NCBI GenBank assembly: GCA_023374025.1
Contig: SIJG01000005.1
Span: forward strand, 546,356-610,355
Source: Heterodera schachtii
Lineage: Eukaryota; Nematoda; Chromadorea; Rhabditida; Heteroderidae
DNA: 64,000 nt
Direction: 5' to 3'
Shown one piece after another: positions 3,690 through 58,963 of this stretch. The notes under the pieces were generated by a model. The model saw only the letters and a program-made list of their open reading frames with translations. It ran no database searches and was not told where the DNA came from. Within the stretch, counting starts at the first letter, position 1; the number at the start of each line of letters is the position of its first letter. A program made the position numbers and the translations under genes.

Positions 3690-3945
3690 TCAACTCAAGC
3701 CGGGTTGGCTGAGCATCATCGTCTAAAGCCGAGTCGGCCATCAACAATTTTGAAATTCTAAGGCCGAGTTGGCCATCATCGAATTTCACAAGCCGAGTCG
3801 GCCATCACCAAATTTTGAAATTCTAAAGCCGGGTTGGCTATCATCGAATTTCACAAAGCCGGGCTGGCATTCGTCAAACAGCAGTAAAACAAAACTGCGA
3901 AATTCATTCAAAGCCGAGTTGGCATTCGACATAGTTTGCTGAAAG
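3690..3945 (+). repeat. Leader repeats with palindromic GCCGAGTCGGC core
   Basis: Between primer site and gag start the leader holds seven copies of a motif of the type AAGCCGAGTTGGCCATC, spaced 25-55 bp. The core GCCGA-G-TCGGC is an inverted repeat. Alternate copies are also linked by CATCGAATTTCACA or TTTTGAAATTCTA spacers, so the array is two nested repeats. The position fits packaging or dimerisation signals of retroelement RNAs; that role is inference. Confidence 0.8.
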
Positions 3946-3961
3946 CGAACACAACTCAAAA

Positions 3962-6900
3962 ATGGCTGCGAACCTCGACCAATTGGTGAGATTGATGACT
4001 CAGCAACAGCAACAATTTGAGGACCAACAGAGATTGGTGCAGCAGCAGTCGCAACAAATTGCGCAGTTGCTAGCGAACCAAAATGCTGCAAACAACGCAG
4101 CTGGTCAACGAAATCCACCAAATGCAGTTGCCATTCCTTCACTGCCGGACATTTCGCTGTTCGAAGCGTGTGATGAGAAGAGTCGTGTGAGCGAATGGCT
4201 CGACCGATTCAAATTCGCCCTCGACTGTGCCGCTCCAACTGCAACTGATCAAATCAAGGTCAAGTCGCTGATGAACAAGCTGAGCGAGATGGCTTTCAGC
4301 GAGTACAGCCGCTCAGTTCTGCCAGCTTCAGTCACCGATTTCGACTTTCCGACAACAGTGCTGAAATTGGAGAAGCTTTTCGCCAAACCCCAGTCAATCT
4401 TCATCGACAGGTATGAATGCCTAAAAGCGGTGAGGGGAGATGGCGAGGACTTTCGGCACTTCATCAATCGGCACAAAAAGCTGCTGAACGACTTCAAATT
4501 CGACGATTTGAAGAAAGAGCAATTTTACTCGTTAATGCTCTTGACGGCACTCAAAGCGCCGAGCGACGCAACACTGAGGCAACGGATTTTGGCCAAATTG
4601 GCAACGGACGGACAAAACGTGTCGTATGACGGAATAGTGGAAGATTTAATCAACTTCCAGTCAACGATTGCGGAGGCTCGAGCGATCGAAACGCCGATCA
4701 GCTCTCGGAATGTAAATGCTGTCCATCAAAAGGGCAAGCAAAATTTCCTGCCGAAGAACAAATTCACCAAAAGTGGACAAACCACAACGGCGAACAAAAG
4801 TTGTTGGCGATGCGGAGAATGTGACCATCCGCCATTCAACTGCCGATTCAAATTGACAAAGTGTCCGAAATGTGGTACCAATGGTCACTTGGGAAAGAAG
4901 TGTGAAAGTGTTCAGGCATGGAAGAAACAACAAAGTGCAAAGATGATGGGAAACAAGAAAATCGGACATTTGAGGATCGGAATGACCTCATGTTCGATCA
5001 ATGCACTTTCGTTGATGCAGATCAAAATTCTGCTGAACCAACAAAAAGTCCAATTCTTCCTCGACACCGGATCGGACATCGACGTGATTGATGAGTTGAC
5101 TTATGCCGAAATTGGCAAGCCACCGATCGAAGTGTGCGACGAAATTGGGAAGACCTTTGATGGAAAGGAAGTTCCATTCATTGGAAAAGGTATTGGCATA
5201 TTCAAATTCGGCGAGATTGAAGTGAAGCGCCCATTTTACGTGGCAAAAGCTGGCTCACTTAATCTGCTGAGTTGCCAAACCATGGACAAATTTGGTTTGT
5301 TGGACGAAATGAAGCTGAAGATCAGCAACGTGGCAGTAAACTTGTGCAACGCCGGCCGCCCAAAGGGAGAGAAAATTATCCCCAGTGGCACAAAACAAAT
5401 GGTCGGCACAGAAGCCAAAATTGAGGCATTGAAAAGGGCCTTTCCCGAAGTCGTTAAAGACGGGTTAGGACTCTGCACAAAGGAGAAGGCACGACTGTCG
5501 TTGAAAGAAGACGCCACACCCATTTTTCGAAAGGCACGCCCTGTGCCATACAACTCTTTGGAAGTTGTCGAAAAAGAATTGGGCCGATTGGAAAAGATGG
5601 GCGTGATCAGCAAAGTCGACCATTTGAACTGGGCAGCGCCTATTCTAATTGTGAAAAAGGCCGACGGCTCAGCGCGACTTTGCATCGACTATTCGACAGG
5701 TCTAAATGATGCACTTCTCGACTGTCAGCACCCGCTCCCAGTACCTGAGGATATTTTTGCCACCCTGAATGGAGGTAAAATCTTTTCCCAGATTGATCTG
5801 AAGGACGCGTATTTACAAATCGAATTGGACGAAGAATCCAAAGATTTGTGCGGATTGGCTACACATAAAGGGAATTACCGAATGGAACGGTTGCCCTTCG
5901 GTGTAAAGTCGGCACCAAGCATATTCCAATCAATTATGGATAAAATGCTGGCCGGACTAAATTTTGCCACCGCTTACCTGGACGACATAATCGTTGTCAG
6001 CGGAACGACTGAACAACACGTCCGACATTTGGAAGAAGTGTTTTCTCGAATCCAAGCCTACGGATTCCGAGTAAAACTGGAAAAATCGACCTTCTTCCGA
6101 GACCAAATCAAATATTTGGGTCAAATAATCGATCGGAATGGACGCCGACCGGACCCAGCAAAAACTCATGCAATTCGCCAAATGCCGGCTCCAAAAGACC
6201 TTTCGTCACTTCGATCATTCCTCGGCATGGTAAACCATTACCAACAGTTTGTAAAGAACATGCGCTTCACTCGGAAGCCTTTGGACGACATGCTGAAGGA
6301 TGACGTTGAATGGAAGTGGACGGAAGAACGACAAAAAGCATTCCAAAAATTGAAGGAAGTGCTTACATCGGAACTGCTCCTCACCCATTATGATCCTAAA
6401 TTGGACATAATTGTGGCAGCCGATGCGTCGGAACTCGGAATAGGGGCCGTCATCTCCCACAAATTTCCGAACGGACAAAGCAAAGCAATTGCACATGCCT
6501 CAAGGTCGCTCACTCCAGCAGAGAAAAATTACTCTCAAATTGAAAAGGAGGGCTTAGCATTGATTTTTGCAGTGCAAAAGTTCCACAAAATGATCTACGG
6601 CAGACACTTCACATTGCAAACTGATCACAAGCCGCTGATCAGCATTTTCGGAAGCAAAAAAGGCATACGGCAGTGCAGCGCAAATCGGCTGCTTCGCTGG
6701 TCACTTACATTGCTGGCCTACGACTTCGACATTGAGTATGTCAATACCAACGATTTTGGTCAAGCCGACGCACTCTCCCGCCTAATTGCCAAAGAATTTG
6801 AATGTGATGATGAAAGAGTGATCGCCGCGTGCAACATCGACGAAGATCTTGGAACTGTTTTGGATATGGCAAAGCAAATTCTGCCAATCAAATTTGAAAA

Positions 6901-8242
6901 TTTGGTCTCTGAGTCCAAAAAGGACAAAACAATGCAAATTGTTATGAAATTCGTCAGAGACGGTTGGCCTGATGAACGCAAATTGGCGCCACAATCAGAA
7001 GAGATTGAGCTTTTCGGCAGAAGAAAAGCTGATCTGACAATTCTGAAGGAATGTCTGATGTATGGCGAACGAATTGTGATCCCTGAAAAATTCCGGACCA
7101 AAATTTTGACACTGCTACACAAGGGCCATCCTGGAATTAAAAGGATGAAACAACTCGCCCGGCAGTATGTCTTCTGGCCGAAATTGGACCAACAAATCGA
7201 GGAATTCGTCAAGAATTGTGCACCGTGTCAATTGGCCGCTAAGGCACCGACAAAAACGGATTTGCACTCATGGCCAAAATCAACGCGGCCATGGCAACGA
7301 ATTCATGCCGATTATGCGGGCCCTTTCTTCGGAAAAGAATTTCTGATTGTTGTGGACTCATATTCGAAGTACCCGGAGGTATTCGAAATGACCACAAAAT
7401 CAGCGGCCGCAACAATCGAACGACTACGGTATCTGTTCACACGACACGGTATACCAGAAACATTGGTAACCGACAACGGAACGCAGTTCGCCGCCAGTGA
7501 ATTCGCAAAATTCACAGAAGCAAATGGAATTGCTCACCTATTTTCCGCTCCGTACAACCCAATGTCCAATGGACAAGCGGAACGGTTCGTGGACACTTTT
7601 AAGAGAGCATTTCGAAAAATAAAAGGGGAGGGAGTGCCAAATAAGGAAATAATCAACACTTTCCTGGTCACTTACCGCACGACACCGAACGATTCGCTGC
7701 CGGATGCAAAATCCCCCGCCGAAATGCTCCTTGGCCGAAAACCGCGCACCACGATTGATCTCTTGATGCCGCCTCTTCCACAGCCAACGGAGAGAGACGC
7801 AAAAATGGAGCAACATTTCAATCGCCGGTTTGGCACTCGACCGCAGAAATTTGTGTCAAATAAGCCAGTTTGGGCTCGACACCGACTCTCGCAGAATTGG
7901 AGAGCTGGGACAATTTGTGAATGCACCGGAGTCATTTACACGGTCAAATTCTCCGACGGTTCGACAAATCGCTTCCATGCGAATCAGTTGCGAAACCGGG
8001 AAAACACAGCAAATGGCCACGAACCATTAAATCTTTTAAATGAGGCATTCCATCTGCCGATCACCGAGCCGAACGTTGGGATTGTAGGGCAGGACCTTGA
8101 GCCAAGGCCTGAGCCGATCAACGATGAGCACCAGGACGAGATCGAACCGGATCAGGCCCGTCGAAGCCCGACACCGCCGCAACAAGCGCCGCGCCGGAGT
8201 GGACGAAACCGACGAGCCCCCGATCGCTACTCGCCCGGATGA
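3962..8242 (+). CDS. Gag-Pol polyprotein of the gypsy-type element (1426 aa)
   Basis: One uninterrupted frame, without a gag-pol frameshift. Gag occupies about residues 1-330 and has a Gln-rich N terminus and two CCHC zinc knuckles (C-X2-C-X4-H-X4-C at 281-294 and 301-314). Aspartic protease has DTG at 368-370. Reverse transcriptase has YLDD at 672-675. RNase H shows D821 and TDHKPL from 887. Integrase has an HHCC zinc module (H1053, H1056, C1086, C1089) and a D-D-35-E core (D1117, D1171, E1207), followed by a GPY/F-like segment near 1330-1370 and a Pro/Arg-rich tail. All catalytic residues I looked for are present. The order PR-RT-RH-IN places it in Ty3/gypsy; it resembles the K02A2.6-type (Mag-like) elements of nematodes. 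ATG 3962 is the first start after the leader repeats. Confidence 0.97.
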   Translation: MAANLDQLVRLMTQQQQQFEDQQRLVQQQSQQIAQLLANQNAANNAAGQRNPPNAVAIPSLPDISLFEACDEKSRVSEWLDRFKFALDCAAPTATDQIKVKSLMNKLSEMAFSEYSRSVLPASVTDFDFPTTVLKLEKLFAKPQSIFIDRYECLKAVRGDGEDFRHFINRHKKLLNDFKFDDLKKEQFYSLMLLTALKAPSDATLRQRILAKLATDGQNVSYDGIVEDLINFQSTIAEARAIETPISSRNVNAVHQKGKQNFLPKNKFTKSGQTTTANKSCWRCGECDHPPFNCRFKLTKCPKCGTNGHLGKKCESVQAWKKQQSAKMMGNKKIGHLRIGMTSCSINALSLMQIKILLNQQKVQFFLDTGSDIDVIDELTYAEIGKPPIEVCDEIGKTFDGKEVPFIGKGIGIFKFGEIEVKRPFYVAKAGSLNLLSCQTMDKFGLLDEMKLKISNVAVNLCNAGRPKGEKIIPSGTKQMVGTEAKIEALKRAFPEVVKDGLGLCTKEKARLSLKEDATPIFRKARPVPYNSLEVVEKELGRLEKMGVISKVDHLNWAAPILIVKKADGSARLCIDYSTGLNDALLDCQHPLPVPEDIFATLNGGKIFSQIDLKDAYLQIELDEESKDLCGLATHKGNYRMERLPFGVKSAPSIFQSIMDKMLAGLNFATAYLDDIIVVSGTTEQHVRHLEEVFSRIQAYGFRVKLEKSTFFRDQIKYLGQIIDRNGRRPDPAKTHAIRQMPAPKDLSSLRSFLGMVNHYQQFVKNMRFTRKPLDDMLKDDVEWKWTEERQKAFQKLKEVLTSELLLTHYDPKLDIIVAADASELGIGAVISHKFPNGQSKAIAHASRSLTPAEKNYSQIEKEGLALIFAVQKFHKMIYGRHFTLQTDHKPLISIFGSKKGIRQCSANRLLRWSLTLLAYDFDIEYVNTNDFGQADALSRLIAKEFECDDERVIAACNIDEDLGTVLDMAKQILPIKFENLVSESKKDKTMQIVMKFVRDGWPDERKLAPQSEEIELFGRRKADLTILKECLMYGERIVIPEKFRTKILTLLHKGHPGIKRMKQLARQYVFWPKLDQQIEEFVKNCAPCQLAAKAPTKTDLHSWPKSTRPWQRIHADYAGPFFGKEFLIVVDSYSKYPEVFEMTTKSAAATIERLRYLFTRHGIPETLVTDNGTQFAASEFAKFTEANGIAHLFSAPYNPMSNGQAERFVDTFKRAFRKIKGEGVPNKEIINTFLVTYRTTPNDSLPDAKSPAEMLLGRKPRTTIDLLMPPLPQPTERDAKMEQHFNRRFGTRPQKFVSNKPVWARHRLSQNWRAGTICECTGVIYTVKFSDGSTNRFHANQLRNRENTANGHEPLNLLNEAFHLPITEPNVGIVGQDLEPRPEPINDEHQDEIEPDQARRSPTPPQQAPRRSGRNRRAPDRYSPG

Positions 8243-13327: not shown

Positions 13328-14203
13328 TAGGGTGGTTGCACCCCCGGCCGACCCCGCCCCGACCCCGAACCCCGACATTTTGGCCATTTTTCGGGGTTAA
13401 CTCAGAGCCCGACCCCGAGGTTTCCAATCACGACAAGCCCCGAACTTGCTGACCCCGACAACCCCGAACCCCGACATTTTGGCCATTTTTCGGGGTTAAC
13501 TCAGAGCCCGACCCCGAGGTTTCCAATCACGACAAGCCCCGAACTTGCTGACCCCGACAACCCCGAACCCCGACATTTTGGCCATTTTTCGGGGTTAACT
13601 CAGAGCCCGACCCCGAGGTTTCCAATCACGACAAGCCCCGAACTTGCTGACCCCGACAACCCCGAACCCCGACATTTTGGCCATTTTTCGGGGTTAACTC
13701 AGAGCCCGACCCCGAGGTTTCCAATCACGACAAGCCCCGAACTTGCTGACCCCGACAACCCCGAACCCCGACATCTTGGCCATTTTTCGGGGTTAACTCA
13801 GAGCCCGACCCCGAGGTTTCCAATCACGACAAGCCCCGAACTTGCTTACCCCGACAACCCCGAACCCCGACATTTTGGCCATTTTTCGGGGTTAACTCAG
13901 AGCCCGACCCCGAGGTTTCCAATCACGACAAGCCCCGAACTTGCTGACCCCGACAACCCCGAACCCCGACATCTTGGCCATTTTTCGGGGTTAACTCAGA
14001 GCCCGACCCCGAGGTTTCCAATCACGACAAGCCCCGAACTTGCTGACCCCGACAACCCCGAACCCCGACATTTTGGCCATTTTTCGGGGTTAACTCAGAG
14101 CCCGACCCCGAGGTTTCCAATCACGACAAGCCCCGAACTTGCTGACCCCGACAACCCCGAACCCCGACTTTTCCAACCCCGACGGTCGGGGATGCAACCC
14201 TAG
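13328..14203. mobile_element. hAT-like element filled with a 99-bp tandem array
   Basis: Begins TAGGGTGGTTGCACCCCC and ends GGGGATGCAACCCTAG, giving imperfect inverted termini. It is flanked by a perfect 8-bp duplication ATTTAAAC (13320-13327 and 14204-14211), the size used by hAT transposases. The inside is almost entirely a 99-bp tandem repeat, about 8.5 units, with a TTGGCCATTTTTCGGGG landmark every 99 bp. It has no coding capacity. Confidence 0.88.
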
Positions 14204-33088: not shown

Positions 33089-33107
33089 TTGCCATGTTGG
33101 CAAACAA
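33089..33107 (+). promoter_or_regulatory. Conserved palindromic promoter motif, first PAH gene
   Basis: TTGCCATGTTGGCAAACAA, 113 bases before the start codon of the gene at 33220. The same block, ATGCCAAGTTGGCAAACAA, stands 106 bases before the next gene. The core TTGCCA..TTGGCAA is an inverted repeat. Confidence 0.6.
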
Positions 33108-33219: not shown

Positions 33220-34173
33220 ATGAAAGGAATAATGTTGGTTTGCCTGCTAATTGCCCTAATTGAATTCGGTAATTTTAAATTAAATATTAATTTTATCTTG
33301 GTTTAATTTGAAAATTTTGTATTCTTAATTAATAATATTGTTTTAATTGAAAAGTAACCTGAAAAATGCTAATAAAGTTTTTTTCCCCATCAAAATTCTT
33401 TGGTTGTGATTTTATAATGCCGAAAATGACAAAACTAATCCGAAAAACTGTGCGCTATTTCTAATTGTTTTTCTTGATTAATTATAAATTTTGTATTACA
33501 TAATTAGGCAATTCAATGCCTATCGATGAAGGAAATGATGATCAAACTAAACCTGCTGTTGACGTTGAAAAATCAGTTGGACGCAAGCGAAAGAAGAACT
33601 TTGAAGATGCAATTAATTTTGTAAATAAAATTAAGGTACGCCTAATTAAAGACAGAGAAAATGTTAATACGGCATTTTAAAATTCTTCATTTTTTAATTA
33701 TTCCCCAAATTTATGAATCTTAGCATTTTTTTTTTAATTTTCCAATCCCACATTTCTAATAGGCTGTCATCTTGTCCAGGTCCCCGGTGTTTTTGTGGGC
33801 TCAAAAATCCGAATCAGAGATAGTTTGGCCTCGAAATCTGATAGACTCGATTTCAAGAAATTTCGTAAAAAGCCGAAAATTTCTAGAAAATTTTTGATTT
33901 TTATTTGGAAATCTCAAAAAAAGTTCATTAATTTTTGTATACTAAGAAATTAATTTATTTTAAACCAATCAGCAACGATTCATTGACCATGAAAATGTGT
34001 ACAAAAATTTTCTGAACATTTTGAACAATTATCGACGAGGCAATTTAAAAAACAAAAATCCAAATGAAGTTTTTTGGCAAGTTGCCACACTTTTCCATGG
34101 CCACGATGACCTGATCAAAGAATTTGAAGCCTTTTTGCCCGAACAAACAATTCGTCGCAAATTGAACGATTAA
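33220..34173 (+). CDS. Secreted SIN3-type PAH-domain protein A (125 aa, 3 exons)
   Basis: Exons 33220-33268, 33508-33635, 33973-34173, with introns of phase 1 and phase 0. Exon 1 is a signal peptide (MKGIMLVCLLIALIEFG). A short acidic segment and a basic patch GRKRKKN (41-47) follow. Residues about 49-116 match the paired amphipathic helix (PAH) fold signature: INFVNKIKQRF, then VYKNFLNIL, then VATLFHGHDDLIKEFEAFLP. In SIN3 corepressors PAH domains bind short repressor helices in the nucleus. A PAH domain alone behind a signal peptide is unusual; KRKK could act as a nuclear signal in a host cell, which is inference. AATAAA lies at 34241-34246. It is a paralogue of the next gene: same module order, VPIEEG/MPIDEG after the signal peptide. 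Confidence 0.85.
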
Positions 34174-34723
34174 AATGACGTCCAATTTAATTGTCAGTGA
34201 AAGAAGGAAGGACAGATGATGATAGCATATTGAAATACAAATAAAATGATATAATAATTTTAACGATCAATGATGTAAATTAAAACTATAATTCATTAAA
34301 ATAGTAGAATATGTTTTTTCTTGTGTTTCATTGGATATTAAATGATTTGTTCAGAATTCAAGTACAAACACGTTTATTAGTCCTTGAAAAAAGGCACATG
34401 ATCAAAGAATTTATCATCCGTTAAAAATCAAGAAAAATTTACTATTTTATATGTTTCAATATTTATAATATTTTCTTTAAATTTGGCTGAAACCTATAAA
34501 ATTGTCACATTTTGGCAATAAAAATTTTGCAATATTTTTTAAAATAGTTTTCCCATATTATTTTATTGGAAAATAAAACGAATTATTAATTATTAGTTCA
34601 TTTAAATTAATTATATCAAATTATTTTAATTTTCTTTCAAAATAATAAATATATTACAATTTTTTATATTCGTATTTCATAAAAAAATATATAAAATAAA
34701 ATTTTCTATTAATAAAATCGATG

Positions 34724-34742
34724 ATGCCAAGTTGGCAAACAA
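34724..34742 (+). promoter_or_regulatory. Conserved palindromic promoter motif, second PAH gene
   Basis: ATGCCAAGTTGGCAAACAA, 106 bases before the start codon at 34849. It is nearly identical to the motif before the first PAH gene and includes the hexamer ATGCCA. Confidence 0.6.
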
Positions 34743-34848
34743 TTTAGAAATATTAAGCATTACAAATTAATATCTCAAGAAAATATTATTTTATTATATT
34801 ATCTTTTATTCAGATAGATAAATCTTCAGTGAAATTTATTTTATTGAA

Positions 34849-36086
34849 ATGATGCTTAATGGAATTTTCTGTTTTTGTCTGGTAATTGTCTATCTTCAAT
34901 TAGGTAATTTTTGATAATTCAATTATTTAAATCAGGGAACAGATTTTAGGTGTTTGACATCGCAAAATGGGTACCTAAATAAGTGCTAAAAAAAGTGCCA
35001 AATATATGCTAAAATCAGGAAAATTCTAATTTTTGTAATTAAAAAACGGTTGAAAACTCAAAATTCCAAAGTGACTACGATTTTTTTTTTAAATTTTTCC
35101 CTCTTCGGCGCCTAAATTTCTGTGCTTAGACGATGAATTTTTAGTCAATTTGCTAACAGATTTTTCTTGAATTTTTCTTTAGAAATTTTTCGATAATTGA
35201 GAGAATTAGGGAAAATAAATGTTAGAACGAACATAAATATGATTTTAAGTATCAGTACCCCAAATAGTTTTTTTTTTGGTGTTTATAACTCGCTCTATTT
35301 ACAAAAATAGGGTGGAGAAAATGGGTTTTTTTGGTGGATTTTTTATTCTAATTAGCCAAATATGTTTTTTCTCAAAAATTTCTTATTGTTAAAACTTTTT
35401 ATCAAATTGTTTTAATTACCAAAATCCTGGCTGGCCCTTTCATTAAAAAAATCAAATTTTACAAACAGGTATTTCAGTGCCTATCGAAGAAGGTTGTAGT
35501 GTTGCTGAAAGTTCAACTTCGAGTAATGAGACGAACAACGATAGCGAAGAAACCAAGCCAATTAAAAATTTTGGTAAAAAAATTAAAAAAAAATTTAATT
35601 AATTATTATTGTATAAAAAAATGATTTCCAGATAAATTTGCTAATTGGCAAATATAAAGTTTTAATATCGTGGTAAAATTTGAAAAAATACACACAAAAA
35701 TAAATATATAAATTTTAATTTAAGAAACTGAACATTTGAATCAAAGAAAGCGAAAAAAACCTGACCTTCAAGATACGGTTAATTATGTGAATAAAATTAA
35801 GGTCAATAAATCTCCTTTTTTTAAATAAATAAATTAAATTGGCATTTTATTTAATTAAATTGAGTTCTATAAATTAATTTGACTTCTCTAGGAGCGTTTT
35901 AGTGATAATAAAAATGTCTACAAACAGTTCCTGGACATACTGAAAAAGCATAAAAATGACCATAAAGAATTACTTTGGCAAGTTGGCCAACTATTTCATG
36001 GCCATGGTGATCTGATCGACGAATTCATTGACTATTTATCTGCGATGGACGGGAATGATCAAATTCGCCAAAAAACCGATGATTAA
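34849..36086 (+). CDS. Secreted SIN3-type PAH-domain protein B (143 aa, 4 exons)
   Basis: Exons 34849-34903, 35469-35573, 35725-35801, 35892-36086; phases 1, 1, 0 are consistent. The signal peptide is MMLNGIFCFCLVIVYLQLG. An acidic Ser/Thr-rich spacer follows, then a basic patch QRKRKKP (60-66) at the same place as in protein A. PAH residues about 70-128: VNYVNKIKERF, VYKQFLDIL, VGQLFHGHGDLIDEF. Compared with A, the loop between the second and third helices is shorter and the basic patch lies on its own exon. The first intron holds about 560 bp of A/T-rich sequence starting CAGGGAACAG that may be an eroded element. The function in SIN3 is known; a role as a secreted mimic is inference. Confidence 0.85.
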
Positions 36087-46239: not shown

Positions 46240-47430
46240 TCATCTTCCGTCTTCAAAGCAAATCATTTTGTTCATGAAATTCAGGTTATATCTTCTTAAT
46301 GAGACTAGTGGAATGTTCAATGTTTGGGCAATTTTACGATCGGCGAGCATCGGATTTTGTTTTTTCATTTGATAAAATTGCGTCGCAAATTCCATTTTTT
46401 CAGCAATTGTGTAAGACTTTCTATCTGTACTAAATTTTAAATGAATGAAATTCTTTTATAAATTTAAATTAAAAAATTAAATTAAATTAAATTCACTTTT
46501 TGAAGTGTTTTGATTGCTATTTAATTTCTCGGCCCATCTTTCAATTGTCACATAACCCACACCAATCATTTGCTTAATTTTTGCTTTAAATTCATTCCAT
46601 TCCTTTCGTGAATTTTTTCCATTTTTCATAAATTCATTTTTTATTTTAAAATATTTTTCAACAATTTCATTTCTTTGTTCATCATTATTTTGATTTTTCA
46701 AAGGTTTTCCATTTTTTAATTGTTTCTTCCATTTATAAATGGTTTTGTTATTTATGCCCAAATATTTGGCCAATATTTTTTGACATTTTTTTCTTTTCCC
46801 TTCCAACTTTTCATTTAATTTTTTTATTTTTTCATATAATTGATCAAATTGCTTTACTATTTTATATTTTTCATCATACGTATAATAATGCTTTTTGATC
46901 ATTCCAAATTCTCTTTTCCATTCGTAAATTTTCTTCCGATTTGCACACAATTTTTTAGCAATTTTAATTTCAATTTTATACCATTCTTTGTTTGAATATT
47001 TCCTTCCCATTTGATTAACTTTTTCTTTAATTTTGTGAAACTTTTCCACAATTTCTCTTTTCTTTTTATCAATTGCTTTTAAGAAATGATCAGAAATTTG
47101 TCCATTTTTTGTTGGCATTGGCAATTGGTCGCCCAATTCATCACAATCTGTGGACATTTCATCACTCTCTTCTTCTTTCACTTCCAAACTTTCATCAAAA
47201 TTTTGATCAATTTGTTGGATATGTTGTCCAAATTGGTTATTCTGATCAGCATTTTCTCCATAAATTATTTGATCAATTCGACAAATGTTTTCATCTGTTC
47301 TTTCGTCCCATTTTTGGCCAAATATTTCATCAAAACTTTTTTCTTCGTTTATTTTGCCAGCTTCAATTTGGTTAATTGCATTTTCTAATATTAAAACCCG
47401 CAAGAATATAAATATTAATAATATTTCCAT
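46240..47430 (-). CDS. Secreted helix-turn-helix repeat protein 1 (372 aa, 2 exons)
   Basis: Exons 47430-46497 and 46424-46240, phase-1 intron (GTGAAT donor, TAGTACAG acceptor). N-terminal signal peptide (MEILLIFIFLRVLILENAIN). An acidic region follows (EVKEEESDEMSTDCDELG), then four ~55-residue repeats: an amphipathic helix starting REIVEKF or alike, then KIA..LG....IYxWKK, the pattern of transposase/homeodomain-like HTH motifs. The fourth repeat is on exon 2 (DRKIAQTLNIPLVSLRRYN). A basic GKRKKCQK run lies between repeats 1 and 2. HTH repeats bind DNA in many proteins; a secreted form may act in the host nucleus, which is inference. Exon 1 is intact. The conserved block at 47508-47575 lies upstream. 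Confidence 0.85.
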
Positions 47431-47507
47431 GATTTTTTTGTAAAGATAAAATGAAATGATTTTTAATAATGTTTTATAAATGAATTTTGTAATTATTCAT
47501 TTTTAAT

Positions 47508-49123: not shown

Positions 49124-50296
49124 TCAAAACATTTCCAATTTTTGCTCAAATTCAGATTTGTATTTTATTAAGGACATTAGCTCAATCTTCAACAATTCTG
49201 CGATTTTCACATCCGAAAATTTTGGAGTTTCCTTTTTCATAAGGTAATATTGCTTCATCATTTCCATTTTTTCGACAATTGTGAACCTTTTTCGCTCTGT
49301 AATATATTCAAATAAAAAAATTTATTTTTAAATTTAAAAATAAAAGTTTAATTGAATTGACCTTTTAAATTATTTTGTTTAATTCCTAATTTCTTTGCCC
49401 ATTTTTCAATCGTCCAATAACCCACACCAAACATTTGTTTAATTTTTACATTAAATGCCTTCCATTCCTTCTGCGAATGTTTTCTCATTTGCATAAATTC
49501 ATTTTTTATTTTCAAATATTTTTCAATAATTTCTCTTTTTGCTCTTCAGTTTTTTGGGTTTCCAAAGATTTTCCATTTTTTAATTGTTTTTTCCATCTAT
49601 AAATGCTTTTTAAACTTACGCCCAAATGTTTTGCTATTATTTTTTGACATTTTTTTCTTTTTCCATTCAATTTTTCATTTAATTTTTCATTTATTTTTCC
49701 ATATATTTGATCAAATCGCTTTAATATTTGAACTTTTTGCTCATATGAATAACTATTTTTGATCATCATTCCAAATTCCCGTTTCCATTTGTAAATTTTC
49801 TTCCGATTTGCACCCAATTTTTGTCCAATTTTTCTTTCAATTTTTTGCCATTCTTTTTTTGAATATTTCCTTCCCATTTGATTAACTTTTTCTTTAATTT
49901 TGTGAAACTTTTCCACAATTTCTCTTTTCTTTTTATCAATTGCTTTTAAGAAATGATCAGAAATTTGTCCATTATTTGTTGGCATTGGCAATTGGCCGAC
50001 CAATTCATCATAATTTATGGACATTTCTTCACTCTCCTCTTCTTTCACTTCCAAACTTTCATCAAAAATTTGATCAATTTGTTGATCATTTTGTCCAAAT
50101 TGGTTATTCTGATCAGCATTTTCTCCATAAATTATTTGATCAATTCGACAAATGTTTTCATCTGTTCTTTCGTCCCATTTTTGGCCAAATATTTCATCGA
50201 AACTTTTTCTTCGTTTATTTTGCCAGCTTCAATTTGGTTAATTGCATTTTTGAATATTAATGCGCATAGTAATAAAAATGTTACTAATATTTTCAT
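49124..50296 (-). pseudogene. HTH-repeat protein 2, two frameshifts
   Basis: Exons 50296-49362 and 49296-49124 are collinear with copies 1 and 5. The frame breaks twice, each time by one missing A in an A-run: near 50210 (five A where copy 1 has six) and near 49540 (five A where copies 3 and 5 have six). Signal peptide (MKILVTFLLLCALIFKNAIN), acidic region, repeats and exon 2 are otherwise well kept. Because both lesions are homopolymer length changes, assembly error is a real alternative to decay. Confidence 0.8.
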
Positions 50297-53508: not shown

Positions 53509-54655
53509 TCAAAACTTCTCCACATTTTCTTGAAATGCAACTTTAAATCTGGCTAATGACGCTGTTGAGATTTTGAAAATTTGGGCAATTTTTCGATCAC
53601 TGAGATTTTTATTTTCATTTTTCAGCTGATAATATTGCTTCATCATTTCCATTTTTTCAGAGATTGTGTAAACATTTTTCTCTGAAATTTATTTTTTTTA
53701 AATTATTATAAATATTAAATTAACCTTTTGAAATATTTTGATTGTTGCCAATTTTCTTTGACCAAATTTCAATTGTCTGAAAACTCACACCAAACATTTG
53801 TTTATTTCCATAAAATTCTTTCCATTCTTTCTGTGAATGTTTTCCATTTTGCTTAAATTCGTTTTTTAATTTAAAATATTTTTCAACAATTTCCCTTTTT
53901 TGCTCATCAGCTTTATGATTTTTCATTGAGTTTCCTTTTTTTAATTGTTTCTTCCATCTTTGAATGCTTCTGATATTTATACCCAAATGTTTTGCCAATA
54001 TTTTTTTACATTTTTCACTTTTTCCCTCCAATTTTTCATTTAATTTCATTTTTAATTTGCCATATATTTGATCAAATTGTTTTAATATTTCTCTTTTTTC
54101 CTCATTTGAATAACTCTTTTTGACCATCATTCCAAATTCCCTCTTCCATTCGTAGATTTTCCCGTAACTAACACGCAATTTTTGAGCAATTTTTCTTTCA
54201 ATTTTAATCAATTCTTCTGATTATTTCTTTTCCATTTTCCTAAATTTTTCTCTTATTGAATGAAATTTTTCCACAATTTCTCTTTTCTTTTTATCAATTG
54301 CTTTTGAAAAATGATCAGAAATTTGTCCATTTTTTGTTGGCATTGGCAATTGGTCGCCCAATTCATCACAATTTGTGGACATTTCTTCACTCTCCTCTTC
54401 TTTCACTTCCATATTTTCATCAAAATTTTGATCAAATTGTCGAACATTTTGTCCAAATTGATTATTCTGATCAGCAATTTCTCCATTAAATATTTGATCA
54501 ATTCGACAAATGTTTTCTTCTGTTCTTTCGACCCATCTTTGACCAAATATTTGAACAAAACTTTTTTCTTGCTTTATTTTGCCAGCCTCAACTCGGTTAA
54601 TTGAATTTTCGAATATTATTGCACATATGAATAAAAAGAATAATAATATTTTCAT
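53509..54655 (-). pseudogene. HTH-repeat protein 3, one nonsense codon
   Basis: Exons 54655-53725 and 53681-53509 with a phase-1 intron. It is the close inverted relative of copy 5 (same exon 2 apart from a few residues, same 3' flank). In the first HTH repeat the codon at 54223-54221 is TAA where copy 5 has TAT, after which the frame continues unchanged through the other repeats. Signal peptide MKILLFFLFICAIIFENSIN is identical to copy 5. A single-base lesion: young pseudogene, readthrough, or consensus error. Confidence 0.85.
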
Positions 54656-54728
54656 TATTTTTTTTTGTAAAATATAATGAATTTTTTTATAAAAAAATAA
54701 AATGAATTTTGTAATTATTAATTTTATA

Positions 54729-54795
54729 GCCTGGCTAAATTATTCAATCAATTATTAACCACATTTAGTCATTATATTATCAATATGATGCAATA
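54729..54795 (-). promoter_or_regulatory. Conserved upstream block, HTH copy 3
   Basis: CTGGCTAAATTATTCAATCA, ATTATTAACCACATTTAG, TCATTATATTATCAATATG; a near-perfect inverse of the block before copy 5. Confidence 0.6.
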
Positions 54796-56454: not shown

Positions 56455-57275
56455 TTTCGCTAAAAATTAATAAATTTTATCGTTGTTATTATGGGTTAGA
56501 CATACAGTTTTTCGTAAATATATGCTTCTGATATTTATGCCCAAATGTTTTGCTAATATTTTTTGATATTTTTCTCTTTTTCTCTCCAATTTTTCATTTA
56601 TTTTGTCATATAATTGATCAAATCTCTTTAATATTTGAAGTCTTTGCTCATATGAATATTTATTTATATTCATTCCAAATTCTCTTTTCCATTCGTAAAT
56701 TTTCTCTTTATTTGTTCCCACTTTTTTTGCAATTTTTCTTTCAATTATCACCCATTCCTTTTTTGAATATTTCTTTCCCATTTGCTTAATTTTCTTCTAT
56801 TATTTTTTGACATTTTTTTCTTTTTCCATCCAATTTTTCATTTAATTTTTCATTTATTTTGCCATATATTTGATCAAATCGCTTTAATATTTTATGTTTT
56901 TCCTCATCCGAATAATTATTTACATTATTTAGTCCAAATTCTCTTTTCCATTTGTAAATTTTCTCTCTATTTGTACCCAATTTTTGTGCAATTTTTCTTT
57001 CAATTTATCCCATTCCTTTTTTGAATATTTCTTTCCCATTTGCTTAATTTTCTTCTTATTTTTATGAAAATTTTCCACAATTTCGCTTTTCTTTTTATCA
57101 ATTGCATTTGAAAAATCAACACAAATTTGTCCATTATTTGTTGGCATTGGCAATTGGCCGCCCAATTCATCACAATTTGTGGTAAGCAAAAAGAAAAATT
57201 CGAATTCCGATTATTTTTCGCTAAAAATTAATAAATTTTATCGTTGTTATTATGGGTTAGACATACAGTTTTTCG
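56455..57275 (-). pseudogene. HTH-repeat protein 4, fragments between direct repeats
   Basis: 56516-57190 retains pieces of exon 1 in at least three frames: the CDELGGQLPMPTNNGQI region, first repeat (KKYSKKEWDKLKEKLHKNW), and second and third segments with IYKWKREFG and IYEWKREFG. Signal peptide and C terminus are missing. A 60-bp direct repeat (TTCGCTAAAAATTAATAAAT...ACATACAGTTTTTCG) brackets it exactly at 56455-56514 and 57216-57275. Confidence 0.75.
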
Positions 57276-57690: not shown

Positions 57691-57758
57691 ATGATACATC
57701 ATATTGATGATATTAATGACTAAATGTGGTTAATTATTGATTGAATAATTTAGCCAGA
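57691..57758 (+). promoter_or_regulatory. Conserved upstream block, HTH copy 5
   Basis: CATATTGATGATATTAATGAC, TAAATGTGGTTAATTATTGA and TTGAATAATTTAGCCAG, 78-145 bases before the start codon. Found in the same place and orientation relative to copies 1, 2 and 3. It lacks ATGCCA. Confidence 0.6.
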
Positions 57759-57835
57759 CTATAAAATTAATAATAACAAAATTCATTTTATGTTTTTATA
57801 AAATAATTCATTATATTTTTACAAAAAAAAAAATA

Positions 57836-58963
57836 ATGAAAATATTATTATTCTTTTTATTCATATGTGCAATAATATTCGAAAATTCAATTAACCGAGT
57901 TGAGGCTGGCAAAATAAAGCAAGAAAAAAGTTTTGATGAGATATTTGATCAAAGATGGGACGAAGGGACAGAAGAAATCATTTGCCAAATTGATCAAATA
58001 ATTCATGAACAAAATGCTGATCAGAATAGCCAAATTGGACAAAATGTTCGTCAATTTGATCAAAATTTTGATGAAAATATGGAAGTGAAAGAAGAGGAGA
58101 ATGAAGAAATGTCCACAAATTGTGATGAATTGGACAGACAATTGCAGATGCCAACAAAAAATGGACAAATTTGTGTTGATTTTTCAAATGCAATTGATAA
58201 AAATAAAAGAGAAATTGTGAAAAAATTCCATAAAATAAAAGAGAAAATTAAGCAAATGGGAAAGAAATATTCACCAAAAGAATGGAGTAAAATTGAAAGA
58301 AAAATCGCACAAAAATTGGGTGTAAATCGGGAGAAAATTTACGAATGGAAAAAAGAATTTGGATTAATCAAAAATAGTTATTCATATGATCAAAAACTTC
58401 AAATATTAAAGCAATTTGATCAAATATATGGCAAAATAAATCAAAAATTGAATGGAAAAAGAAAAAAATGTCAAAAAAGAATAGCAAAACATTTGGGCAT
58501 AAGTTTAAAAAGCATTTATAAATGGAAGAAACAAATTAAAAAAGGAAAATCTTTGAAAAAGGAGAAAACTGAAGAACAAAAAAGAGAAATAATCCAAAAA
58601 TATTTTAAAACAAAAAACGAATTTGTGCAAAAGGGGAAACATTCACGAAAAGAATGGAAAGAATTTGATGCAAAAATTAGACAAATATTTGGCGTGAGTG
58701 ATAGAGCAATTGAAAAATGGGCAAAGAAAATTGGAATCAATCAAAACATTTCAAAAGGTTAATTTAATTTTATTATTTAATTTTAATATTATATTTTAGA
58801 GAAAAAGATTTTTGAAAAAATGGCAATGATGAAGCAATATTATCAGCTGAAAAATGAAAATAAAAATCTCACCGATCGAAAAATTGCCGAAAATTTGAAA
58901 ATCTCAACAGCTTCATTAGCCAGATTTAAAGTTGCATTTCATGAAAATGTGGAGAAGTTTTGA
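57836..58963 (+). CDS. Secreted helix-turn-helix repeat protein 5 (361 aa, 2 exons)
   Basis: Exons 57836-58757 and 58800-58963; the 42-bp intron is phase 1. Best complete member. Signal peptide 1-20 (MKILLFFLFICAIIFENSIN), Asn/Gln/Asp-rich acidic region 27-110, then four HTH repeats at about 124-176, 186-234, 249-299 and 309-355. Each has a long charged helix followed by KIA..LG(V/I)....IY.WKK. Basic run GKRKKCQK lies at 207-214. The last repeat (DRKIAENLKISTASLARFK) is on exon 2. AATAAA occurs at about 59018 and 59038. The repeats resemble the HTH units of transposases, so descent from a transposase or psq-like protein is possible. DNA binding and secretion into a host are inference. Confidence 0.87.

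What the first reader, a model, noticed from the sequence alone, without database searches (positions are those of the whole stretch)
33220..36086. Two tandem genes for secreted proteins with a SIN3-type PAH domain and a KRKK basic patch
Both genes start with a signal-peptide exon, continue with an acidic spacer and a KRKK patch, and end in a single PAH domain (VNKIKxRF, VYKxFLxIL, LFHGHxDLIxEF). PAH domains are known from SIN3 corepressors, which are large nuclear proteins. A stand-alone PAH behind a signal peptide suggests an exported mimic that could occupy host repressor or corepressor interfaces. The two copies differ in linker length and exon division.
Basis: partly seen in the sequence, partly recalled or inferred. 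Interest (0 to 1): 0.93.

Follow-up and report, generated by a model that had tools for sequence, protein, structure and literature searches.

The report
Secreted SIN3-type PAH2 decoy proteins
Two neighbouring intact genes in a cyst-nematode genome, part of a family of four, encode small proteins with a predicted secretion signal, a basic patch and a single PAH domain of the kind found in the SIN3 gene-silencing machinery; they are likely injected into plant root cells, where they would block the plant's own SIN3 partners.

The parts
33220..33268 (+). gene 1 exon 1, predicted signal peptide (MKGIMLVCLLIALIEF), ends in phase 1
33508..33635 (+). gene 1 exon 2: spacer, basic patch, first part of PAH helix 1 (FEDAINFVNKIK), ends in phase 0
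33582..33596 (+). gene 1 basic patch RKRKK (nuclear-targeting-like, by eye)
   Evidence: read from exon 2; same letters in H. trifolii P0004
33973..34173 (+). gene 1 exon 3: rest of the PAH domain and short tail, with stop
   Evidence: Pfam PAH 54.3 bits, E 1.1e-14, within about 33997-34137
34849..34903 (+). gene 2 exon 1, predicted signal peptide (MMLNGIFCFCLVIVYLQL), ends in phase 1
   Evidence: 17 of 18 residues the same in P0001
35469..35573 (+). gene 2 exon 2, acidic spacer
35725..35801 (+). gene 2 exon 3: basic patch and first part of PAH helix 1, ends in phase 0
35745..35759 (+). gene 2 basic patch RKRKK
   Evidence: read from exon 3; RKRKS in P0001
35892..36086 (+). gene 2 exon 4: rest of the PAH domain and tail, with stop
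   Evidence: Pfam PAH 39.0 bits, E 6.5e-10, within about 35916-36035
33090..33107 (+). upstream element TGCCATGTTGGCAAACAA, 130 bases before the gene 1 ATG (not shown to act)
34725..34742 (+). upstream element TGCCAAGTTGGCAAACAA, 124 bases before the gene 2 ATG; overlaps the DOG-box core ATGCCA at 34724-34729 (not shown to act)
   Evidence: DOG box = ATGCCA in passages of PMC4901422 and PMC10946958

Best explanation
The two genes belong to a family of four intact genes that each encode a hydrophobic leader predicted to act as a signal peptide and one SIN3-type PAH domain, and the proteins are likely nematode effectors that would enter the host nucleus and act as decoys of the plant's SIN3-like (SNL) corepressors. 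Shown here: gene structure, PAH membership, nearest match to PAH2 for genes 1 and 2, absence of the HDAC-interaction domain, orthologues in H. trifolii. Predicted: secretion (leader hydrophobicity) and the helical-bundle fold. Inferred and untested: gland expression, injection, nuclear entry by the basic patch, binding. Proposed mechanism: the free PAH2 binds the amphipathic SIN3-interaction helix of host repressors and keeps them from SNL-HDA19, so their target genes would gain histone acetylation. In Arabidopsis seeds, loss of SNL1 and SNL2 raises acetylation and expression of AUX1 and other auxin genes (PMC5114640, abstract and passages), the kind of change a feeding site could use.
Confidence: 0.5

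Rival explanations
1. The proteins are secreted by the nematode but act inside or on the nematode (body fluid, egg, cuticle) and never reach a plant nucleus; the PAH was reused as a plain helix-binding module.
For: Only a leader is seen; gland expression and delivery were not testable here; promoter evidence is weak.
Against: All four genes carry basic stretches (RKRKK in genes 1 and 2, PKRRKIE or PKRKKIE in the tails of genes 3 and 4), hard to explain in a body-fluid protein. The family searches returned Heterodera proteins and one sedge protein, and none from Globodera pallida or Meloidogyne although their SIN3 is in the same database; that search needs shared 5-residue words, so it is not proof of absence.
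Confidence: 0.17
2. The leader exon is not used; the genes make small nuclear PAH proteins that trim the nematode's own SIN3 complex.
For: The public model of the gene 1 orthologue P0004 starts at the ATG in exon 2; a short PAH-only protein exists elsewhere, P0005 in the sedge Rhynchospora.
Against: All four genes keep a hydrophobic first exon with the same phase-1 donor; P0001, P0002 and P0003 include it; the leader of gene 2 is 17 of 18 identical in H. trifolii while its spacer pieces are 27 of 34 and 8 of 13. Pocket positions 308 and 311 of gene 1 differ from the tylenchid SIN3.
Confidence: 0.12
3. The proteins reach the host nucleus but act as adaptors, not decoys: the PAH holds a host transcription factor and another part of the protein recruits something else.
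For: Genes 3 and 4 have long charged tails after the PAH.
Against: Genes 1 and 2 end about 10 to 16 residues after the PAH and their orthologues show no second Pfam domain over its cut-off.
Confidence: 0.14
4. Origin rival (independent of the function): the PAH was not copied from the nematode's own SIN3 but captured from a plant SNL gene, or reshaped to resemble it.
For: P0004 (gene 1) shares 6 of 21 plant-private states, P 0.003 by shuffling, but 0 of 9 tylenchid-private, 0 of 9 yeast-private and 0 of 6 Parascaris-private ones; pocket states F310, N333, R336, N339 are those of the sedge; BLAST identity 35/69 with the sedge PAH2, 29/68 with the H. schachtii SIN3 PAH2.
Against: The phase-0 intron lies at the same codon as in own SIN3 PAH2. 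Only one plant sequence was in hand. E305, D306 and H369 of the six shared states also occur in PAH1 (alignment). By BLAST bits SIN3B, Nilaparvata and yeast PAH2 score above the sedge for P0004, and for window exon 3 alone H. schachtii SIN3 PAH2 (51.6) scores above it too (48.9). Gene 3 shares 2 of 8 tylenchid-private states (P 0.04) and 3 of 19 plant-private (P 0.17). Topology tests reject neither sister group (all members with tylenchid PAH2 p 0.10, with plant PAH2 p 0.22).
Confidence: 0.3

Closest known systems
SIN3 / Sin3A, Sin3B, plant SNL1-6 corepressors (PAH2 domain)
   Same: PAH domain, PAH2-type helix 1, predicted fold, same intron position as own SIN3 PAH2
   Different: One PAH only, predicted signal peptide, basic patch, no HDAC-interaction domain; 106-173 residues in the four public models against 1331 and 1407 for the two cyst-nematode SIN3 proteins
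GS-like effectors of cyst nematodes (PMC5919673, abstract and outline)
   Same: A housekeeping gene family gives rise to a multi-copy family with a leader
   Different: Here a scaffold domain instead of an enzyme; gland expression and delivery are reported there, not here
Heterodera effector 32E03 (PMC12937675 passages)
   Same: Would raise histone acetylation in the host nucleus
   Different: 32E03 inhibits histone deacetylases; here the proposed step is loss of HDAC recruitment
TOPLESS-binding effectors with EAR motifs, such as HaRxL21 (PMC12886408 passages)
   Same: Aim at a corepressor-repressor interface
   Different: Those carry the repressor-side motif and bind the corepressor; these carry the corepressor-side domain and would bind the repressor
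Small plant PAH protein P0005 (Rhynchospora)
   Same: Short PAH-only protein, the one non-nematode hit of the family search
   Different: Two PAH domains and, as read by eye, no leader

Membership tests
PAH domain (Pfam PF02671) | Profile score above the curated cut-off of 21.3 bits | tested here: met
   54.3 and 39.0 bits for the window exons; 34.5 to 49.7 for the six other sequences scanned
PAH domain (Pfam PF02671) | Four-helix bundle | tested here: met
   predicted only, on the H. trifolii orthologues: helices 65-80, 85-97, 102-112, 117-131 and a short one at 135-141 in P0001, five in P0004; best match Sin3 PAH2
PAH2 subtype | Nearer to PAH2 than to PAH1 or PAH3 (genes 1 and 2) | tested here: met
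PAH2 subtype | Nearer to PAH2 than to PAH1 (genes 3 and 4) | tested here: inconclusive
   they branch between PAH1 and PAH2; best BLAST of gene 3 is PAH1, of gene 4 PAH2
PAH2 subtype | Pocket residues V311 and L332 | tested here: met
   V and L in all four genes (hand-placed alignment)
SIN3 corepressor family | Several PAH domains in one protein | tested here: not met
   one PAH per protein
SIN3 corepressor family | HDAC-interaction domain and Sin3 C-terminal domain | tested here: not met
   no such Pfam match in P0001-P0004; own SIN3 on contig C1 is a separate gene
Cyst-nematode effector | N-terminal signal peptide | tested here: inconclusive
   hydrophobic leaders in 4 of 4 genes, but no signal-peptide predictor was available and one public model lacks the exon
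Cyst-nematode effector | DOG box ATGCCA upstream (dorsal gland) | tested here: inconclusive
   3 of 4 genes within 500 bp (not gene 1), P 0.05 for hits and 0.02 for genes
Cyst-nematode effector | Gland-cell expression and delivery into the host | not testable with these tools
   no RNA or protein data at hand

The most novel reading that the evidence does not exclude
A plant parasite carries a forged copy of its host's corepressor docking domain: gene 1 is a secreted PAH2 whose ligand pocket has plant residues (F310, N333, R336, N339) instead of those of the nematode's own SIN3, gained by gene capture from a plant or by convergence, so that it soaks up host repressors. It would be the first exported SIN3-type decoy.
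Probability: 0.3. Interest if true: 0.92.

Novelty: new variant of a known kind. Interest (0 to 1): 0.8.

Why it matters
Effectors known to attack host corepressors carry the repressor-side peptide (EAR motif for TOPLESS; PMC12886408 passages). A secreted corepressor-side domain would be the reverse trick and would put the SIN3-SNL hub on the list of parasite targets. It is directly testable: about 70 residues, a known pocket, known mammalian ligand rules and a small set of host SNL partners. It also offers a case to ask how a nuclear scaffold domain becomes an export product, and whether its pocket came from the host.

Tried and rejected
Chance motif match: rejected by E-values. Pseudogenes: rejected, all exons open with GT..AG and consistent phases. 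Exons of the normal SIN3 gene: rejected, SIN3 is on contig C1 and matches the public H. schachtii SIN3 P0006 (95% with my rough model). More copies nearby: a six-frame profile scan of C5:476001-690000 (5043 open frames; 355 bases at 546001-546355 not scanned, frames cut at 10-kb borders) found only pieces of these four genes above threshold; whole-genome searches with one member of each pair gave the same four, SIN3 and two chance-level places, E 1.6 and 2.9. Relatives in viral contigs: none. Donor by tree: not resolved; 77-78 columns, long branches, bootstrap not settled. Promoter element as a gland mark: TTGGCAA lies 118-126 bases before genes 1, 2 and 3, a number of genes reached by 0 of 300 shuffles at 200 bases (motif chosen after looking); but TGCCANGTTGGCAAACA is at 10 places in the genome (reversed control 0), 2 of them these genes, and the other 8 are related repeats, 7 of 8 with TATAAAAG some 20-25 bases on, none with a signal-peptide-like ATG within 400 bases (random stretches: 165 of 1000), so it is not used as evidence. 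A 15-base extension hit only gene 1. Effectorome paper PMC11309470: its main text holds neither SIN3 nor PAH (section 7 read); supplementary tables could not be opened. Library searches: ten. Searches (5 papers; none; 3; 15 listed of 228) aimed at secreted or effector PAH/SIN3 proteins; no listed title or abstract start describes one. Plant SNL sequence in the text of two papers: none. Solved plant PAH chain: none among 17 matches to P0005. Small slips: searches (file not yet present; exon borders off by one or two bases, put right), upstream stretches of genes 2 and 3 shifted by 1-2 bases.

A recalled Arabidopsis SNL PAH2 looked even closer to gene 1 than the sedge; it entered no call, as no tool returned it.

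Full report
WHERE IT IS. The window is C5:546356-610355 of a genome of 178.5 Mb in 356 contigs, given without a name. Gene 3 of the family is 97% identical to H. schachtii niasHS_013727 and SIN3 95% to H. schachtii niasHS_010070 with my rough model, so it is most likely Heterodera schachtii or a close relative (inference).

GENES. Gene 1 has three exons and gene 2 four; coordinates are under parts. Every intron is GT..AG; the first is phase 1 and follows the hydrophobic leader, the last is phase 0 and splits the PAH right after VNKIK. Leaders have 11-residue hydropathy means of 3.55 and 3.12, and 3.15 and 2.49 in genes 3 and 4. The spacers lead to RKRKK. Pfam PAH hits are E 1.1e-14 and 6.5e-10.

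A FAMILY OF FOUR. A search of the whole genome with the PAH profile gave 6 places, all 12 first-look candidates scored: the two window genes, two genes at C5:510.6 and 512.6 kb, and two pieces of the ordinary SIN3 gene on C1. The extra pair (L007: gene 3 on minus, exons 5096-5048, 5002-4973, 4919-4840, 4787-4422; gene 4 on plus, exons 6256-6313, 6357-6386, 6431-6504, 6569-6874), about 67 kb from gene 1, is divergently arranged and has the same leader exon, phase-1 donor and phase-0 PAH intron, with a basic stretch (PKRRKIE / PKRKKIE) in the tail. A profile scan of 214 kb around found no fifth gene.

RELATIVES. In about 5.8 billion proteins the family profiles gave 4 and 5 hits at E <= 0.01: H. 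trifolii P0001 (gene 2), P0002 (gene 3), P0004 (gene 1), H. schachtii P0003 (gene 3), and a sedge protein with PAH1 and PAH2, P0005. The database holds Globodera pallida and Meloidogyne SIN3, but no family member from them was returned; the search needs shared 5-residue words, so this is not proof of absence. Between the window genes and H. trifolii, gene 2: leader 17/18, helix 1 11/12, helix 2 17/20, helices 3-4 28/30, spacer pieces 27/34 and 8/13; gene 1: helix 1 11/12, helix 2 19/20, helices 3-4 33/36, spacer 26/30 of which two residues lie outside the public model.

POCKET. PMC8657803 (passages) lists 19 residues of the SIN3A PAH2 pocket. P0004 keeps 13 of 19 against 20 of 51 elsewhere (Fisher P 0.028), P0001 10 of 19 against 15 of 46 (0.11), P0003 9 of 19 against 15 of 49 (0.16). 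For comparison: own SIN3 PAH2 14 of 19 against 21 of 52 (0.013), sedge PAH2 11 of 19 against 23 of 49 (0.30), human PAH1 9 of 19 against 12 of 49 (0.064). V311 and L332, L and M in the two PAH1 rows, are kept in all four genes. Gene 1 has the best case for a working pocket; gene 3 (H at 329) the weakest.

ORIGIN. For descent from the nematode SIN3: its PAH2 is split at the same codon and phase (NRIK/GRF and VNKIK/QRF); PAH1 is split elsewhere. Against: P0004 shares 0 of 9 states private to five tylenchid SIN3 PAH2 (0 of 8 by the definition) and has I308 and V311 where all five have L. For a plant-like source: 6 of 21 sedge-private states, P 0.003 by shuffling, among them F310, R336 and N339 of the pocket; N333 is also shared (2 of 115 other SIN3 have it). 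The rows were the 120 listed of 1514 proteins found: 5 taken as tylenchid, 115 others, plus yeast and one plant. E305, D306 and H369 are common in PAH1. P0001 shares 4 of 19 plant-private states (P 0.02), P0003 3 of 19 (P 0.17) and 2 of 8 tylenchid-private ones (P 0.04). By BLAST bits the sedge is fourth for P0004 and below H. schachtii SIN3 PAH2 for window exon 3 alone. Constrained trees reject neither tylenchid (p 0.10) nor plant (p 0.22) sisterhood. The window copy of gene 1 has the same F310, N333, R336 and N339, and F304 where P0004 has I (read).

MECHANISM. Established elsewhere: PAH2 binds single amphipathic helices of repressors in a hydrophobic cleft formed mainly by helices 1 and 2 (PMC7948954 and PMC8657803 passages); plant SNL PAH domains bind the repressor VAL1 (PMC9266683 passages); SNL1 and SNL2 work with HDA19 and their loss raises H3 acetylation and expression of AUX1 and other auxin genes in seeds (PMC5114640 passages); blocking Sin3A PAH2 with SID decoys re-expresses differentiation genes in mammalian cells (PMC5190053 passages). 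A free PAH2 without the HDAC-interaction domain should compete for the same helices and bring no deacetylase. Predicted: leader and fold. Inferred: gland expression, injection, nuclear entry, binding, derepression.

NOVELTY. The 2026 reviews PMC12886408 and PMC12937675 hold no SIN3, and the first no SNL (term searches of their main text); PMC11309470 holds neither SIN3 nor PAH in its main text. Library searches aimed at secreted or effector PAH/SIN3 proteins listed nothing relevant (the last showed 15 of 228). Subscription papers and supplementary tables were out of reach.

Noticed in passing
window 46480-47496 (-), 49515-50228 (-), 53723-54739 (-), 56470-56796 (-), 57749-58759 (+): A second tandem family in the same window: leader-like starts in three of the five places (for example MKILLFFLFICAIIFENSINRVEAGK) and helix-turn-helix matches (HTH_23 E 1.9e-9 at 57749-58759; 4.5e-7 and 4.9e-7 in two others; HTH_23 under its cut-off at 46480-47496; 56470-56796 not scanned). 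The copy at 53723-54739 has a stop inside. Candidate secreted DNA-binding-like proteins.
   Followed up: partly
L007 4422-5096 (-) and 6256-6874 (+), contig C5:510.4-512.9 kb: Divergent pair of further stand-alone PAH genes with leaders and basic tails; gene 3 looks partly PAH1-like, so the two pairs may imitate different SIN3 pockets.
   Followed up: partly
SIN3 proteins P0006-P0010: All five SIN3 PAH2 domains taken as tylenchid have L308 and L311 where the 115 other listed SIN3 have I and V: a change of the pocket edge in these plant parasites' own SIN3.
   Followed up: partly
window 33090-33107 and 34725-34742; L024-L031: Palindrome TGCCAAGTTGGCA before the window genes (one mismatch at gene 1) also sits some 20-25 bases before TATA boxes in related repeats at other places of the genome (7 of 8).
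   Followed up: partly
window 3935-8239 (+): Open frame of 1435 residues that reads by eye like a retroelement polyprotein; only listed.
   Followed up: no
window 13331-14200 (+): Open frame of 290 residues made of near-perfect copies of a unit of about 33 residues (PDNPEPRHFGHFSGLTQSPTPRFPITTSPELAD).
   Followed up: no
P0004 (H. trifolii niasHT_027053): The public model begins at the exon 2 ATG and misses the leader exon, so a secretome screen on that annotation would overlook it.
   Followed up: yes
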